In this document: positions 35,826 through 51,084 of the stretch, piece by piece
Numbering within the stretch: position 1 is the first letter of the stretch
How the letters are laid out: each line of letters opens with the position of its first letter
Assembly (NCBI GenBank): GCA_965249615.1
Contig: CBDFMI010000006.1
Coordinates: forward strand, 310,001 to 374,000
Source: G963555815 sp965249615 [NCBI: bacterium]
GTDB taxonomy: Bacteria > UBA8248 > JACPRG01
Reading direction: 5' to 3'
Length of the DNA: 64,000 nt
Translations under genes and position numbers: made by a program
Notes under the pieces: generated by a model
The model's database searches: none
The model's input: the letters and a program-made list of their open reading frames with translations, nothing else
Told to the model about the DNA's origin: nothing

Positions 35826-36377
35826 ATGACATCTTGGATTCGGGGAATCTTCCTTGTCTCCCTTTTGGGACTTGTCCTCTGGGCCGGTCCGGCGCTGGCG
35901 GCAGATGAATCTTTCTTCGCGAATCTTCAGCTGGTCCGGTTCAAGACCCCCGTTGATGTCCCGAACTTTGCGCTGCCGGACGTTTCGGGAGAGCGCGTCA
36001 ACTTTGGGGATTTCGAGGGCAAGGTGGTCCTCATGAATTTTTGGGCCACATGGTGACCCTACTGTCTACGAGAGCGGCCGGCTCTCGAAGCCCTTTATCA
36101 AAAATATAGGGAGCAGGGGTTCACCATTTTGGCCATCTCTATTGACTCTTCGGGTGAGAGGGCTGTGAAGCCTTATGTCGAAGATAACGATCTAACCTTC
36201 CCCCATCTCATTGACCAGACCACTGAGGTCTCGAGGGTTTTCATGGTTCCGGCGACCCCGACGACCTTTCTTGTGGACCGAGAAGGGCGTCTTGTCGGCG
36301 GCGGAGCGGGCTTCAGAGATTGGGCCACGCCGGAGGCCCACCAGCTCATCGAGGCCCTTCTTGAAGACGGTTCGTGA
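35826..36377 (+). CDS. TlpA/ResA-like thioredoxin with in-frame UGA (probable selenoprotein, U-x-x-C)
   Basis: ATG 35826 (GGAG upstream) opens a 183-residue frame interrupted only by TGA at 36054-36056. Residues 1-25 form a signal peptide ending ALA-A; then VPNFALPDVSGERVNFGDFEG and KVVLMNFWATW lead to codon 77, the UGA. The same frame continues PYCLRERPALEALYQKY, GFTILAISIDSS, VPATPTTFLVDREGRLVGG and EALLEDGS to a TGA at 36377. TlpA/ResA proteins have W-C-x-x-C here, so the UGA replaces the first active-site cysteine: U77-P-Y-C80. A stem-loop fits a SECIS at 36069-36087. Being followed by ccdA, it is likely a periplasmic thiol reductant for cytochrome c or CuA maturation. A pseudogene is less likely because everything else is intact. 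Confidence 0.87.
36069..36087 (+). promoter_or_regulatory. Candidate bacterial SECIS element of the TlpA-like selenoprotein
   Basis: CGAGAGC and GCTCTCG form a perfect 7-bp stem with loop GGCCG. The loop begins 19 nt after the UGA at 36054-36056 and starts with GG, fitting the described bacterial SECIS features (short apical loop with an early G, 16-37 nt from the Sec codon). Confidence 0.75.
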
Positions 36378-36499: not shown

Positions 36500-37243
36500 A
36501 TGGATCTAGGGTTTGGTGTATCTGCATTTGTCGCCTTTGTGGCAGGTCTCATCTCATTCCTTTCTCCATGTGTGCTTCCTCTGATCCCCTCTTATCTCTC
36601 TGTTGTATCAGGGGTTTCCCTAGAGGAGATGCAGGAAGGGGGGGGCACCTCCGTCCGCAGGAGAGTCTTCGTAAGCTCCCTTCTGTTCGTGTTCGGTTTT
36701 TCAGCCGTCTTTATCGCCCTGGGGGCCTCCTTCAGCCTTATCGGCCAGGCCCTTTTTCAGTTTCGCGGCGTACTCACGCACATAGGCGCCGTGGTGATCA
36801 TCCTCTTTGGACTCTATGTCGCCGGGGTGTTCAAGCCGAGTCTTCTCTCTCGGGAATACCGGCTGATGGGAAATAAAAAGCCTATCGGCTACGCGGGGGC
36901 GCTCCTCGTGGGGATCTCCTTCGGGATAGCTTGGACTCCCTGTGTGGGGCCGGCGCTGGGGGCCATTCTGACCCTGGCGAGCAGTCAAGGAGGGTTCAGC
37001 CAGGGGACGGGTCTTCTGGTCGTATACTCGGCGGGTTTGGCCATTCCCTTCCTCCTGAGCTCCCTGGCTTTGAACACCTTTTTCAAATTCTCGAAGGGGT
37101 TTCGAGGGTGGATGCCGGCCTTTCAACGGGCGGGCGGCGTGGTCCTGATCCTGATGGGGGTTCTATTGTTGACGGGCCAGTTTACCCGTCTCAACAATAT
37201 TGCCACCGCCTTTACCCCGGAGTGGATCTTGAGGTGGCTCTAA
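36500..37243 (+). CDS. ccdA: Cytochrome c biogenesis thiol-disulfide transporter CcdA
   Basis: CcdA (247 residues, six membrane helices) carries electrons from cytosolic thioredoxin to periplasmic thioredoxin-like proteins. The two essential cysteines are in LSPCVLPLIPSYLS and WTPCVGPALGAIL, with the internal pseudo-symmetry of the DsbD core. Its periplasmic partner is most likely the TlpA-like selenoprotein encoded 122 bp upstream. The cupredoxin and cytochrome oxidase genes follow. Confidence 0.94.
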   Translation: MDLGFGVSAFVAFVAGLISFLSPCVLPLIPSYLSVVSGVSLEEMQEGGGTSVRRRVFVSSLLFVFGFSAVFIALGASFSLIGQALFQFRGVLTHIGAVVIILFGLYVAGVFKPSLLSREYRLMGNKKPIGYAGALLVGISFGIAWTPCVGPALGAILTLASSQGGFSQGTGLLVVYSAGLAIPFLLSSLALNTFFKFSKGFRGWMPAFQRAGGVVLILMGVLLLTGQFTRLNNIATAFTPEWILRWL

Positions 37244-37288: not shown

Positions 37289-38038
37289 ATGCGAGTGAAG
37301 TGGGTCGGGTTTGTCGTGCTCGCTCTGGCCTTAGTGGCCGTGGTGTGGACCTTCAAAGGGGGCGAGGCGGCGTACGAGGAGGGTGATGTGACGGATGGTG
37401 GCACCATCGCCGGCGCCATAAAATTCATGGGAACTCCCCCCCCGCCCAACCCGCTCGAGATCACCAAGGACCTGGAAGCCTGCGGGAAAGAGCCCATTAT
37501 GGATGAAAGCTTGGTCGTCGGCGAGGACGGCAGTGTCAGGTGGGCCGTTGTCTCCTTGACCGACGTGGAGTCGGGGAAAAAGTGGGACCTGCCAGAGGCC
37601 GTGCTGGACCAAAATGGGTGCATCTACCGTCCCCACGTCTTGCTGGTCCGCACGGGGGAGGACGTCAACGCCCTCAACAATGACGGGGTCCTGCACAACA
37701 TTCACACCTTTCCTGAAAAGAACGCGCCTTTGAACAAGGCCCACCCGAGGTTCCTGAAGCCCCCGAGGAAGCTTGTATTGAAAGGAAAGTCCTTCCGGAC
37801 GCCAGAGACGATCAATGTCAGGTGCGATATACACCCCTGGATGAATGCGTATATCGTAGCCGCCGACCACCCTTACTTTGCGGTGACCGACAAAGGCGGC
37901 CAATTCACCCTGACTAACGTGCCCCCCGGCACCTATACGCTGGAGGTCTGGCAGGAATCACTCGGCAAGGCTTCTCAGCAGGTCACTGTAGAGCCCAACG
38001 AAACGACCACCCTGACCGTGGCCCTCGAGGGGAAGTAA
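37289..38038 (+). CDS. Periplasmic cupredoxin with C-terminal carboxypeptidase-regulatory-like domain
   Basis: The 249-residue protein has an N-terminal signal/anchor (VGFVVLALALVAVVW) and a plastocyanin-like copper site: His136 (HNIHTF), Cys179, His182 and Met185 (RCDIHPWM). The C-terminal ~60 residues (YFAVTDKGGQFTLTNVPPGTYTLEVW) match a carboxypeptidase-regulatory-like beta-sandwich. It lies between ccdA and coxB, so it could donate electrons to, or handle copper for, the oxidase (inference). Confidence 0.85.
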   Translation: MRVKWVGFVVLALALVAVVWTFKGGEAAYEEGDVTDGGTIAGAIKFMGTPPPPNPLEITKDLEACGKEPIMDESLVVGEDGSVRWAVVSLTDVESGKKWDLPEAVLDQNGCIYRPHVLLVRTGEDVNALNNDGVLHNIHTFPEKNAPLNKAHPRFLKPPRKLVLKGKSFRTPETINVRCDIHPWMNAYIVAADHPYFAVTDKGGQFTLTNVPPGTYTLEVWQESLGKASQQVTVEPNETTTLTVALEGK

Positions 38039-38900: not shown

Positions 38901-40655
38901 GTGAGCGAGTCGGCGGCGAGGGCGATGCAGGATGCCCATGTCCACCACGGGCATCTGGGCTTTTGGCGCACGTACGTCTTCTCGACAGACCACAAAATGA
39001 TCGCCAAGCAGTTTCTCTTCATGGGCCTTTTCATGATGGTCCTGGGAGGGCTGATAGCGCTCCTGATGCGCTGGCAGCTGGCGTGGCCGGAGACGTCGGT
39101 GCCAGGCTTCGGGTGGGTTCCTGAGCCCTACATGTACAGCGGGATCATCCCGCCCGACTTCTACAACGTGCTCTTCACGATGCACGCCACGCTCATGATC
39201 TTCTTTGTACTCATGCCCATCCTGGTCGGCTGTTTTGGGAACTTCTTGATCCCTCTCATGATCGGGGCCCGGGACATGGCCTTTCCTGTCCTCAACACGC
39301 TCTCCTTCTGGGCCGCTGCGCTGGCGGGCCTTGTGATGCTGGCCGGGTTCGCCGTCCCGGGGGGACACGCGGCTGGCGGCTGGACCGCCTACGCCCCCCT
39401 GACGGCGAATGTGACCTATACCGGAGTGGACTGGGGCCAGAACCTCTGGATCATTAGCCTCATTATCCTCAGCTTCTCGTCCCTCATGGGGTCCATCAAC
39501 TACATCACCACGATCATCAACATGCGGGCTCCGGGGATGACATTCTTTCGCCTGCCGTTGGTGATCTGGTCCCTCTTCATTGTGGCGATCCTCCTCTTGC
39601 TGGCACTGCCCGTCTTGACCGCAGCCCTGACGATGCTCTTGTTCGATCGGGCCCTGGGGACGAGTTTCTTCCTCCCCGCGGGCGGGGGGGAGCCGCTCCT
39701 GTGGCAGCACCTCTTCTGGTTCTTCGGCCACCCGGAGGTCTACGTCTTGATTCTTCCGGCCATGGGGATCGGATCGGAGATCCTCGCGGTCTTTTCTCGA
39801 AAGCCCATCTTTGGCTATCGGGCCATGGTGTACGCCATGATGGCCATCGCCTTCCTGGGGTTCATCGTCTGGGGTCATCATATGTTCCAGAGCGGGATGA
39901 ACCCGGTGTTGGGCACGAGCTTCATGCTCTCGACGATGGTGATCGCCGTGCCGTCGGCCATCAAGACCTTCAATTGGCTCGGCACCCTCTGGGGCGGTTC
40001 GATCCGATTCACCACGCCGATGCTGAACGGGCTCGCCTTCGTTTCCATGTTCGTGATCGGGGGCTTGAGCGGTATTTTTATGGCGTCAACCCCGGTAGAC
40101 ATCTTCATCCACGACACCTATTTCATCGTCGCCCACATCCACTATGTGCTTTTTGGCGGCAGTCTCTTCGGCCTTTTCGGGGCGATTTACTATTGGTTCC
40201 CTAAAATGTTTGGCCGGATGATGAACGAGACCCTCGGGAAGATTCACTTCTGGGCAACGTTCATTGCGTTCAACGGCGTCTTCTTCCCGATGCACATCCT
40301 GGGCGTCGGGGGGATGATGCGCAGGATCTATAACCCTCTGCAGTATGAGTTTCTGCAGACGCTGCAGCCCCTCAATGTCTTCATCACCATCAGTGCTTTT
40401 GCACTCGGCGCGGCGCAGATCGCGCTGGTGATCAATTTCTTCTGGAGTCTCTTTGCTGGGAAGAGGGCGGAGGCGAACCCATGGCATGCGAACACCCTAG
40501 AATGGAGTGCTCCCTCACCGCCCCCCCACGGCAACTGGGGCGAGGCCGTTCCAATCGTCTATCGAAGCGCCTATGAGTACAGCTCGCCCGAGGTTTCGGA
40601 GGATTGGCTTCCGCAAGATCGACCCCTGGTCCCAAAACCGGCGGCAGCCCATTAG
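38901..40655 (+). CDS. coxA: Cytochrome c oxidase subunit I (A-type heme-copper oxidase)
   Basis: The 584-residue catalytic subunit has 12 membrane helices, with FTMHATLMIFFVLMP (heme a ligand), WQHLFWFFGHPEVYVLILPAMGI (CuB His, the Tyr cross-link and the Glu of A1-type enzymes), WGHHMF (CuB His pair) and DTYFIVAHIHYVLFGGS (heme ligands). It reduces O2 to water and pumps protons. GTG 38901 is the start, 49 bp after coxB. Confidence 0.97.
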   Translation: MSESAARAMQDAHVHHGHLGFWRTYVFSTDHKMIAKQFLFMGLFMMVLGGLIALLMRWQLAWPETSVPGFGWVPEPYMYSGIIPPDFYNVLFTMHATLMIFFVLMPILVGCFGNFLIPLMIGARDMAFPVLNTLSFWAAALAGLVMLAGFAVPGGHAAGGWTAYAPLTANVTYTGVDWGQNLWIISLIILSFSSLMGSINYITTIINMRAPGMTFFRLPLVIWSLFIVAILLLLALPVLTAALTMLLFDRALGTSFFLPAGGGEPLLWQHLFWFFGHPEVYVLILPAMGIGSEILAVFSRKPIFGYRAMVYAMMAIAFLGFIVWGHHMFQSGMNPVLGTSFMLSTMVIAVPSAIKTFNWLGTLWGGSIRFTTPMLNGLAFVSMFVIGGLSGIFMASTPVDIFIHDTYFIVAHIHYVLFGGSLFGLFGAIYYWFPKMFGRMMNETLGKIHFWATFIAFNGVFFPMHILGVGGMMRRIYNPLQYEFLQTLQPLNVFITISAFALGAAQIALVINFFWSLFAGKRAEANPWHANTLEWSAPSPPPHGNWGEAVPIVYRSAYEYSSPEVSEDWLPQDRPLVPKPAAAH

Positions 40656-42545: not shown

Positions 42546-42590
42546 GCGAGGGGACGTGCGTGGTCTGAACGGACGCAATGGGTGGGTAAT

Positions 42591-43286
42591 ATGGCGCAAG
42601 GGGTAGCCACAGGTTCTGGAATCGGTCTCGCAAAGGATGTCCCCAGGGTGGGACGCCGGGCAGAAGGCCTTCCTCCGTCACCCCCCCCACCTCCATTTAA
42701 CGATGGCCCCTTATTCCCTCTCCCTCCCCTAGATCCGCCCATCAGCAACGCCCGCCTGGGCATGGTGATCTTTCTCGGGGCGGAGATGATGTTTTTTGTG
42801 GGGCTCATCGGCGCCTTCATCACCTTTCGCCTCGGGAGCCCAATCTGGCCCCCCGTCGACCAGCCGCGCCTGCCCATCGGAGTGACCGGGGTCAACACGG
42901 CCATCTTGCTCTTCAGCGCCTATTGGATGTTTCGAGCTTTGCGCGCCCCCCGGCAGGGGAACCAGCAAGGCCTCGCGGTCGGACTTTTAACGACGGCCCT
43001 TCTCGGGACGATCTTTCTGGGGGTCCAGGGGTACGAGTGGGCCCGCCTACTTCACTTTGGCCTCACATTGTCGGGCGGGGTTTACGGGGCGACTTTTTAC
43101 ACGCTGGTCGGATTCCATGGGATTCATGTGCTCGCCGCGGTCATCTGGCTCCTGGTCGTCCTCGTCAGGACAACGAGAAACCGCTTTTCTGCAAAGAGAC
43201 ACGTTGCCGTTCAGCTCTGTGGGATGTACTGGTTTTTCGTGGTCGGACTTTGGCCCGTTCTTTTTGCCCTTGTATATCTGAACTGA
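42591..43286 (+). CDS. coxC: Cytochrome c oxidase subunit III
   Basis: This 231-residue membrane protein has five helices of the bacterial subunit III type, including FLGAEMMFFVGLIGAFITFR, GVYGATFYTLVGFHGIHVLAA and the terminal YWFFVVGLWPVLFALVYL. Subunit III stabilises the catalytic core. ATG 42591 is preferred; a GTG three codons earlier is possible. A proline-rich, poorly conserved N-terminal segment precedes the first helix. A second subunit III-like gene follows at 43635. Confidence 0.93.
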   Translation: MAQGVATGSGIGLAKDVPRVGRRAEGLPPSPPPPPFNDGPLFPLPPLDPPISNARLGMVIFLGAEMMFFVGLIGAFITFRLGSPIWPPVDQPRLPIGVTGVNTAILLFSAYWMFRALRAPRQGNQQGLAVGLLTTALLGTIFLGVQGYEWARLLHFGLTLSGGVYGATFYTLVGFHGIHVLAAVIWLLVVLVRTTRNRFSAKRHVAVQLCGMYWFFVVGLWPVLFALVYLN

Positions 43287-43312: not shown

Positions 43313-43638
43313 ATGGGAAACGGGATAATCTCCAGGAAGTGTTCAGGCGTGTCGTTCAGGACGAAGAGATATCTCCTGGCTGGTTTGTGGGTGGCGTTTT
43401 TCGTCATTCCGGTTTCGGCAGAGGCATGCGCCTTCTGTTGGATCCAGGACGCCCCCTTCGCCAAGGGGTTCCAGGGGACCCTCCTCTTCCTGATGGTGGC
43501 GCCCTTCGCCGTCGTTGGGTCCATCGCGGGGTGGCTTCTCTGGGCACACCGGCGTGCTTCTGTACGCCACCGAAGAGAGATTTTGGCCCAAGGTGGCCCC
43601 ACCCGAAGCGTGGAGATGGATGGGAGCTGTTTCGATGA
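43313..43638 (+). CDS. Small CxxC membrane protein between two coxC genes, 3' end unresolved
   Basis: From ATG 43313 the frame gives a protein-like stretch of about 85 residues: signal segment (LLAGLWVAFFVIPVSA), a CAFC motif (Cys39, Cys42) and a membrane helix (TLLFLMVAPFAVVGSIAGWLL) ending in WAHRR. Beyond this the frame stays open to 44152 but runs out of frame through the next gene and loses protein character. In another frame a TGA at 43636-43638 overlaps the next ATG (ATGA), so a frameshift near 43550-43630 may have hidden the natural end. Small CxxC membrane proteins are common in oxidase loci; function unknown. Confidence 0.4.
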
Positions 43639-44234
43639 AGGCAACGGTCGAACCCACGGAATCCCCCCTCACTCCCGAGAGCTCGGGCAAGCTGGGGATG
43701 TGGATATTCCTGGTGGGGGACGCAATGACCTTCGGGGGGTTGCTCGCCGGGTATGGCGCCCTGCGCTATGGAAGCGTCGACTGGCCGGTCCCGTCGGAGG
43801 TGCTCGGGATACCCCTGACGGCGGTCATGACCTTCATCCTGATCTGCACCAGCGTCACCATGGTGGAGGGCCTGGCAGCGATTCGCAGGGGAAACCGCCG
43901 GCGAATGCGAAACTTCCTCCTGCTGACCGTCCTGGGAGGGCTGCTGTTTCTGGGATTGCAGGCCTTGGAATGGACCGAACTCATCCATCGCGGCCTCACG
44001 CTGACCGGAAATCCCTTCGGGTCCACCCTCTTCGGGGCCACCTTTTTCGTCCTGACGGGTTTTCACGGCGCCCACGTCGCCGGGGGCGTCATCTACCTTT
44101 CCTGCATCGTGATCCTGGGGGTTCGCGGCCGTTTTTCAGGAGAGAACCATAACCAGGTTGAAATCGCTGGGCTTTACTGGCACTTCGTGGATCTCGTTTG
44201 GATCCTGATTTTCACCTTTGTCTATCTGGTGTAG
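43635..44234 (+). CDS. Second cytochrome c oxidase subunit III-like protein
   Basis: The 199-residue protein is a five-helix subunit III homologue (GMWIFLVGDAMTFGGLLAGY, GATFFVLTGFHGAHVAGGVIYL, GLYWHFVDLVWILIFTFVYL). It is clearly different in sequence from the coxC product and closer to CyoC/quinol-oxidase-type subunits. ATG 43635 is chosen (MKATVEPTESP); the frame is open upstream without good protein character. It may replace coxC in one form of the complex or assemble with it. Confidence 0.88.
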   Translation: MKATVEPTESPLTPESSGKLGMWIFLVGDAMTFGGLLAGYGALRYGSVDWPVPSEVLGIPLTAVMTFILICTSVTMVEGLAAIRRGNRRRMRNFLLLTVLGGLLFLGLQALEWTELIHRGLTLTGNPFGSTLFGATFFVLTGFHGAHVAGGVIYLSCIVILGVRGRFSGENHNQVEIAGLYWHFVDLVWILIFTFVYLV

Positions 44235-50544: not shown

Positions 50545-51084
50545 TCACTTCAGCGGGGGTGCCTCTGGAAAGTCCACCTCCGTGTCCATGGCGATGTTGA
50601 AATAATTGGTGAACATGTGGAGGGCGACGTTGGCCACAATCTCTGAAATGTCACTGTTAGAGTAGCCGGCGGAGCTGAGGGCCTTCACGTCGCCGTCCGA
50701 GACCCTGGCCTTTTGCTTAATGACCTTCTCGGCGAATTTCAGCGCTGCGTCTATCTTTGCGTCGGACGACTTGGCCCGGCGGGCGTCTAAAACCTGCTCA
50801 TCTGTCAATCCCAGCGATTTCCCGATCGCTGTGTGGGCCGCGAGTCAGTAATGGCAGCCGTTAATCTCGCCGGTCAGGACGGCGATAGACTCCCGGAGTT
50901 TCGGGTCCAGGTCGCCGCCGCCCAGGGCGCCGCTGAACTGGAGGTAGCCCTCCAGGGTGGCCGGCGAGTTTCCCATGACCTGAAAGATGTTGAACACCTT
51001 CCCCAACTTCTGCTGGACGCCGTCATAGAGCGCCTTGGTCTTTCCTGTGGCCTGATCTGGTGCCAAAGGTGGAATTCGAGACAT
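50545..51084 (-). CDS. AhpD/carboxymuconolactone decarboxylase-like protein with in-frame UGA (probable selenoprotein, C-x-x-U)
   Basis: From ATG 51084 (AAGGAG upstream) the frame encodes 179 residues with one internal stop, TGA at 50847-50845. Before it: MSRIPPLAPDQATGKTKALY, FNIFQVMGNSPATLEGYL and VLTGEINGCHY. After it, in the same frame: LAAHTAIGKSLGL, then MTDEQVLDARR and the C-terminal VALHMFTNYFNIAMDTEVDFP. AhpD-fold peroxidases have C-x-x-C followed by a His; here the second cysteine is UGA: C77-H-Y-U80, with His84. A perfect stem-loop follows (50812-50831). It is probably a cytosolic peroxidase or thiol-disulfide enzyme of the AhpD group. An annotation pipeline would split it into two short genes. 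Confidence 0.87.
50812..50831 (-). promoter_or_regulatory. Candidate bacterial SECIS element of the AhpD-like selenoprotein
   Basis: On the minus strand CAGCGAT and ATCGCTG form a perfect 7-bp stem with loop CGGGAA. The loop begins 20 nt after the UGA and has G at its second position, matching bacterial SECIS rules and the layout of the hairpin at 36069-36087. Confidence 0.75.

What the first reader, a model, noticed from the sequence alone, without database searches (positions are those of the whole stretch)
35826..36377. TlpA-like thioredoxin is a probable selenoprotein: W-U-P-Y-C
A single in-frame TGA (36054-36056) sits exactly at the first cysteine of the W-C-x-x-C active site. The frame continues for 107 codons with intact TlpA/ResA features and no other lesion. 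A perfect 7-bp hairpin with a GG-starting loop lies 19 nt downstream, as a bacterial SECIS should. The next gene is ccdA, the electron supplier of such proteins. A periplasmic selenocysteine protein next to CcdA and a cytochrome oxidase would be a selenium-dependent branch of cytochrome c/CuA maturation.
Basis: partly seen in the sequence, partly recalled or inferred. Interest (0 to 1): 0.92.

Follow-up and report, generated by a model that had tools for sequence, protein, structure and literature searches.

The report
Selenocysteine TlpA/ResA-type thioredoxin gene
The gene really does seem to use an in-frame stop codon to insert selenocysteine into the active site of an exported thioredoxin-like protein; this is a further member of a known type of selenoprotein, in a bacterial phylum already known to be rich in them.

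Summary
One TGA (36054-36056) sits at the first Cys of W-C-x-x-C in an otherwise intact TlpA/ResA-type protein. A perfect 7-bp hairpin (36069-36087, loop GGCCG) follows; its loop starts 19 nt after the TGA. No genome is held for the window, but its oxidase gene places it in or near Methylomirabilota, where selB passes its cut-off in 84 of 95 genomes and tRNA-Sec in 79 of 95. Of 100 homologues taken from that phylum (enriched for internal stops), 41 have TGA and 59 Cys codons at the column, none TAA or TAG. All 41 keep a covarying hairpin at one register; the Cys genes do not. With the codon masked, the window gene falls in the Sec clade (99/95). A second likely selenoprotein gene lies in the window (AhpD-like, CxxU, 51084-50545). 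Sec insertion is therefore very well supported. UxxC thioredoxins of this type and a huge selenoproteome in this phylum are already in print. The selenium-dependent cytochrome/CuA branch is not shown: in a sample not chosen by ccdA, 0 of 38 Sec genes but 13 of 34 Cys genes have ccdA directly downstream; the window is the exception.

The parts
35826..36377 (+). TlpA/ResA-type thiol-disulfide oxidoreductase, 183 aa when read through TGA: signal peptide (MTSWIRG...AGPALA-AD, judged by eye), W-U-P-Y-C active site, ATPTTF cis-Pro region
   Evidence: PF00578 2.9e-28, PF08534 7e-25; ResA 4nmu 9.9e-26; TlpA 1jfu 8.9e-21
36054..36056 (+). in-frame TGA, read as selenocysteine 77, at the first Cys of WCxxC
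36069..36087 (+). putative bacterial SECIS hairpin, 7 bp, loop GGCCG (36076-36080), loop starts 19 nt after the TGA
36500..37243 (+). ccdA-like membrane thiol-disulfide transporter (DsbD_TM); likely electron donor (inferred)
37289..38038 (+). protein with a CarboxypepD_reg domain (probably exported, by eye); its homologue also lies before coxB in 14 of 18 related oxidase regions fetched, plus one partial match at a contig end
38177..38851 (+). coxB (COX2) with an intact CuA motif CAELCGFGHSGM (motif judged by eye)
38901..40655 (+). coxA, cytochrome oxidase subunit I (named by eye, not scanned against Pfam; used as a search query)
50545..51084 (-). second likely selenoprotein gene: AhpD/CMD-like, motif NGCHYULAAHT (CxxU), TGA at 50847-50845, hairpin 50831-50812 with its loop 20 nt after the TGA

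Best explanation
The gene encodes an exported TlpA/ResA-type thiol-disulfide oxidoreductase whose attacking active-site residue is selenocysteine. SelB with Sec-tRNA(Sec) decodes the UGA at codon 77 with the help of the hairpin just downstream (inferred from anatomy and comparison). The mature protein would work like ResA/TlpA: Sec77 attacks a disulfide in a periplasmic partner, Cys80 resolves the mixed bond, and a membrane transporter such as the adjacent CcdA re-reduces it (inferred from homology and adjacency). Likely clients are apocytochrome c or CuA/copper-chaperone thiols, but the client is not shown. The confidence given is for the selenocysteine reading; for the CcdA-fed reductase role I would say about 0.6.
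For: TGA at the catalytic column with the rest of the frame intact. In 101 TlpA rows (window plus 100 homologues) the column is TGA in 42 and Cys in 59, with no TAA or TAG, although matches flagged with TAA or TAG were fetched too. In all 41 Sec homologues six consecutive pairs form at one register (Watson-Crick in 41 of 41 at five of them; 26 Watson-Crick plus 15 G-U at the sixth), with compensatory types (GC 32, TA 6, CG 2, AT 1; AT 30, GC 11). In the 59 Cys rows the outer four of these pairs are Watson-Crick in 12, 25, 2 and 7 rows. Tree with the codon masked: all 42 Sec rows, the window among them, on one side of one branch, 99/95, one change. selB over cut-off in 84 of 95 phylum genomes (2 of 14 controls), tRNA-Sec in 79 of 95 (5 of 14 controls). 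A second likely Sec gene with its own 7-bp hairpin in the same 64 kb, whose five closest homologues are Cys with at most 3 bp there.
Against: No genome is held for the window, so selA/B/C/D in this organism is untested. The window hairpin is centred one codon further out than in the 41 homologues. In the synonymous test, which ignores G-U pairs, only 23 of 41 Sec genes reach P<=0.05. Three of the 38 genomes behind the Sec rows lack both selB and tRNA-Sec over cut-off (G018, G070, G100). By plain match score the best hits to the window protein (queried with C for U) are Cys genes (G107, G103); only the tree puts it with the Sec rows, and the window is a long branch (0.88). CcdA as donor rests on a neighbourhood not seen in relatives.
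Confidence: 0.95

Rival explanations
1. Pseudogene or sequencing/assembly error: a Cys codon TGC/TGT has become TGA by chance.
For: One copy in one contig of unknown depth; the genome is not available.
Against: 41 loci from 38 genomes share the TGA at the same codon, none has TAA or TAG, and the hairpin is kept; a second gene in the window shows the same pattern.
Confidence: 0.03
2. General reassignment of UGA (for example to Trp or Gly) in this organism.
For: An in-frame TGA is read through.
Against: TGA ends 21 of 43 counted frames in the window; the TGA aligns with Cys in homologues; selB and tRNA-Sec are common in the phylum.
Confidence: 0.01
3. The gene is a selenoprotein and belongs functionally with the oxidase: a selenium-dependent reductant dedicated to CuA/cytochrome c maturation, as the first reader proposed (a narrower form of the best explanation, not exclusive with it).
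For: Adjacent ccdA and an oxidase cluster with a CuA subunit. ResA/TlpA homology. Some Sec relatives also lie beside genes with CxxCH motifs (L160, L161, L163, L164; L126).
Against: 0 of 41 Sec relatives have ccdA directly downstream (38 with at least 900 nt in hand). In the sample not chosen by ccdA, 13 of 34 Cys and 0 of 38 Sec genes do. No tlpA or ccdA match in 18 related oxidase regions, 14 of them with 1.5 kb or more upstream.
Confidence: 0.25

Closest known systems
UxxC thioredoxin-fold selenoproteins: 'Thiol-disulfide isomerase-like' (cd02966), 'Trx-like 1' (COG0526), 'Prx-like thiol:disulfide oxidoreductase' (PF00578)
   Same: Same fold class and UxxC position, predicted by the same logic of TGA plus SECIS. 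Listed in PMC13188914 (passages), PMC1088965 (passages) and PMC2398784 (passages).
   Different: The passages seen do not mention ccdA linkage or a Methylomirabilota TlpA clade. The sequences of those entries were not compared here.
ResA / TlpA (Cys) thiol-disulfide oxidoreductases
   Same: Homology over the soluble domain (4nmu_A 9.9e-26, 1jfu_A 8.9e-21); NCBIfam ResA model 116.3 bits.
   Different: Sec replaces the first Cys; scores are below the curated cut-offs of NF002854 (170) and NF047696 (230).
ResA-like WAxxUGC motif protein (NF041054)
   Same: ResA-like family with Sec in its name motif; matches at 72.9 bits.
   Different: Cut-off of 300 bits not reached; UGC motif, not UxxC.

Membership tests
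Bacterial selenoprotein | in-frame TGA aligned with Cys in homologues | tested here: met
   59 of 100 homologues have TGC/TGT there, 41 TGA
Bacterial selenoprotein | hairpin soon after the TGA with a small apical loop holding a G | tested here: met
   7 bp, loop GGCCG, 19 nt; the G-in-loop feature is from a passage of PMC1088965. bSECISearch itself was not run.
Bacterial selenoprotein | SelA/SelB/tRNA-Sec/SelD in the same genome | not testable with these tools
TlpA/ResA family | thioredoxin-fold sequence homology with WCxxC and cis-Pro regions | tested here: met
   (with C written for U)
TlpA/ResA family | curated NCBIfam cut-off for ResA or TlpA | tested here: not met
   116.3 of 170 and 98.4 of 230 bits; so filed as TlpA/ResA-type, not as either named model
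TlpA/ResA family | exported, with reductase activity on periplasmic disulfides | not testable with these tools
   signal peptide judged by eye only
Methylomirabilota Sec-TlpA clade | groups with Sec homologues when codon 77 is masked | tested here: met
   42 rows 99/95; inner set of 9 rows 99/83

The most novel reading that the evidence does not exclude
In this lineage a Sec-TlpA has taken the place of the usual Cys-TlpA beside ccdA and upstream of the terminal oxidase, giving a dedicated selenium-dependent reducing branch for CuA or cytochrome c assembly in an aerobically respiring Methylomirabilota bacterium.
Probability: 0.2. Interest if true: 0.6.

Novelty: new member of a known kind. Interest (0 to 1): 0.4.

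Why it matters
It adds a well-supported exported selenoprotein to a phylum for which a very large selenoproteome has been predicted, and it is the kind of gene that an annotation reading TGA as a stop would split or miss. Within the sample the Sec/Cys split is a single change on the tree, and the two sides tend to have different neighbours, so paired Cys and Sec paralogues make the question of what Sec buys in a periplasmic reductase testable.

Tried and rejected
Hairpin folding energy alone was weak (8 of 200 shuffles as good for tlpA; 73 of 200 for the second gene with its flanks), so synonymous recoding and covariation were used for tlpA and helix length against homologues for the second gene. 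A first read-through scan used thresholds too strict to recover even the target and was replaced by a looser one; of its nine hits two were kept (36054+, 50847-), and the other seven were set aside by inspection, without a homology search. Genome loci from the pattern scan gave 82 matches at the column, all Cys; one of the search patterns itself contained the Cys, so this says little about Sec frequency. In two other genome sets (198 genomes of the phylum of G004 and 235 of the phylum of G010), the 30 best loci of each gave 39 and 30 matches at the column, of which 3 and 0 were TGA; flagged matches without a locus were not checked. Structure prediction was not run. PGK was a poor placer (60% identity at best over near full length).

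Sampling: the 100 homologues are not a random sample. They are the loci given, all further listed matches flagged with an internal stop (TGA, TAG or TAA; the list was cut off), and 30 loci found by ccdA, with duplicates removed and rows that did not span residues 60-150 dropped. So 41 of 100 is not a frequency, and 38 of 59 ccdA-linked Cys rows is inflated; one search gives the figures without the ccdA-chosen loci.

Papers: only passages and search listings were seen (passages of PMC13188914, PMC1088965 and PMC2398784; PMC12013277 was searched for six terms with no hits). The listings of seven searches showed no title or abstract on a ccdA-linked Sec-TlpA or on this clade; the library lacks most subscription journals. 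Deng et al. 2026 (Cell Rep), cited by the review for the MAG with 63 selenoproteins, and Haft and Tolstoy 2025 (not held) were not read.

Full report
What is there. The frame 35826-36377 is intact except for one TGA at codon 77, exactly the first Cys of the WCxxC site. Pfam and PDB comparisons make the read-through product a TlpA/ResA-type thiol-disulfide oxidoreductase (PF00578 2.9e-28, PF08534 7e-25; ResA 4nmu 9.9e-26, TlpA 1jfu 8.9e-21), below the curated cut-offs of the named ResA and TlpA models. A signal peptide is judged by eye. A perfect 7-bp hairpin follows, its loop 19 nt after the TGA. By synonymous recoding a helix that long in that loop range arises in 188 of 20,000 draws.

Where it comes from. 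No genome is held. The window's coxA is 78% and 76% identical to partial copies in a Methylomirabilota and a Rokuibacteriota MAG, and 54% or less to the other genomes matched in that call (the record titles are). In the 95 genomes of that phylum held, near-complete copies reach 83%. PGK is less decisive, 60% at best over near full length. I place the window in or near Methylomirabilota.

Sec machinery. In those 95 genomes selB passes its curated cut-off in 84 (2 of 14 control genomes) and tRNA-Sec passes its gathering score in 79 (5 of 14 controls). selA and selD were not searched there.

Homologues. The window protein has a match in 95 of 95 genomes. I took the 30 loci given and fetched the further listed matches flagged with an internal stop of any kind. 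A first pass over 72 distinct matches gave TGA 38, TGC 20, TGT 14 at the column, no TAA and no TAG. With the wider regions and 30 loci found through ccdA the set became 100 homologues: 41 TGA, 59 Cys. The 41 come from 38 genomes (my count from the locus tables); of these, 33 have selB and 29 have tRNA-Sec over cut-off, and three have neither (my counts; completeness of these genomes is not given).

Hairpins. At one register (positions i+j=42, counted from the T of TGA as 0) six consecutive pairs form in 41 of 41 Sec genes: Watson-Crick throughout at five, and 26 Watson-Crick plus 15 G-U at the sixth. Several pair types occur: GC 32, TA 6, CG 2, AT 1; AT 30, GC 11; AT 16, GU 15, GC 10. In the 59 Cys genes the outer four pairs are Watson-Crick in 12, 25, 2 and 7 rows; the inner two, largely fixed by the shared peptide, still pair in 47 and 58. 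The window's helix is centred one codon further out, so a hairpin is kept though its register moved. In a per-gene synonymous test that ignores G-U pairs, 23 of 41 Sec genes and 0 of 59 Cys genes reach P<=0.05.

Tree. With codon 77 masked, the window and the 41 Sec rows lie on one side of a branch with 99/95 support, and U versus C needs one change (quick tree with the same split, 95). The window is a long branch, with 42% identity at best to any row in the tree columns. By plain match score its best hits are two Cys genes.

Neighbourhood. In the 100 homologues a ccdA match lies directly downstream of 38 of 59 Cys rows and 0 of 41 Sec rows (38 of the 41 with at least 900 nt downstream in hand). 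Because 30 loci had been found by ccdA, I recounted on the 72 matches: 13 of 34 Cys and 0 of 38 Sec rows (Fisher 1.3e-5, kinship ignored). One Sec locus (L149) has a distant CcdA-like match (24.8% identity) upstream. Eighteen related oxidase regions show no tlpA or ccdA match; 14 of them had 1.5 kb or more upstream in hand. So the order Sec-tlpA, ccdA, oxidase is special to this window as far as sampled. No terminator-like or promoter-like site was found between tlpA and ccdA, which fits co-transcription but does not show it.

A second likely Sec gene. A scan of in-frame TGAs led to 51084-50545, an AhpD/CMD-like protein (PF02627 5.7e-14; TIGR00778 core domain over its cut-off, TIGR01926 74.6 bits against a cut-off of 81.8) with NGCHYULAAHT and a 7-bp hairpin whose loop starts 20 nt after the TGA. 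Folded with its flanks it is no better than shuffles (73 of 200 as good). Of 30 homologous loci examined, 23 have TGA and 7 TGC at the column; the five closest are TGC with at most 3 bp at that place; 22 of the 23 TGA loci have 5 to 7 bp and one (L254) only 3; one TGC locus (L264) has 5. Two Sec genes in 64 kb support Sec use by this organism.

What is known. A 2026 review lists 119 prokaryotic selenoprotein families or subfamilies, among them UxxC 'Thiol-disulfide isomerase-like' (cd02966) and 'Prx-like thiol:disulfide oxidoreductase', and reports a Methylomirabilota MAG with 63 predicted selenoprotein genes, with a caution about co-assembly (PMC13188914, passages). UxxC relatives were found in Sargasso Sea and GOS data (PMC1088965, PMC2398784, passages). 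Three Sec-TlpA matches also turned up in a second phylum (that of G004, whose locus L007 is titled Nitrospirae). The gene is therefore a new member of a known kind.

Mechanism. Shown by comparison: homology, Sec column, hairpin, clade. Inferred: SelB-dependent decoding, export, Sec77 as attacking and Cys80 as resolving residue, CcdA as donor. Open: the client. The selenium-dependent cytochrome/CuA branch remains a fair hypothesis that the neighbourhood of relatives does not support.

Noticed in passing
window 50545-51084 (-): Second likely selenoprotein gene in the same window: AhpD/CMD-like with CxxU, TGA 50847-50845 and a 7-bp hairpin; the five closest homologues found have Cys.
   Followed up: yes
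L086 (810-1313 and 1501-2001): A Cys-TlpA and a Sec-TlpA lie next to each other on the same strand, a natural paired comparison.
   Followed up: no
L160, L161, L163, L164: The Sec-TlpA gene is followed by a gene with several CxxCH motifs (multihaem cytochrome-like, by eye) in all four; a radical-SAM-like gene (by eye) comes next in L160, L161 and L164.
   Followed up: partly
L274, L292, L299: Sec-TlpA with the same kind of hairpin (6-7 bp, loop 16-17 nt after TGA) in genomes of a second phylum, that of G004.
   Followed up: partly
L149, 4-600: A distant CcdA-like match (24.8% identity) upstream of a Sec-TlpA.
   Followed up: partly
window 42582-43286 and 43515-44234: Two COX3-like genes in one oxidase cluster (the second scanned as PF00510; the first by cross-match only); pairs of matches also occur in related regions such as L222-L225.
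   Followed up: no
window 37289-38038: CarboxypepD_reg protein of unknown role; a homologue lies before coxB in 14 of 18 related regions plus one partial.
   Followed up: partly
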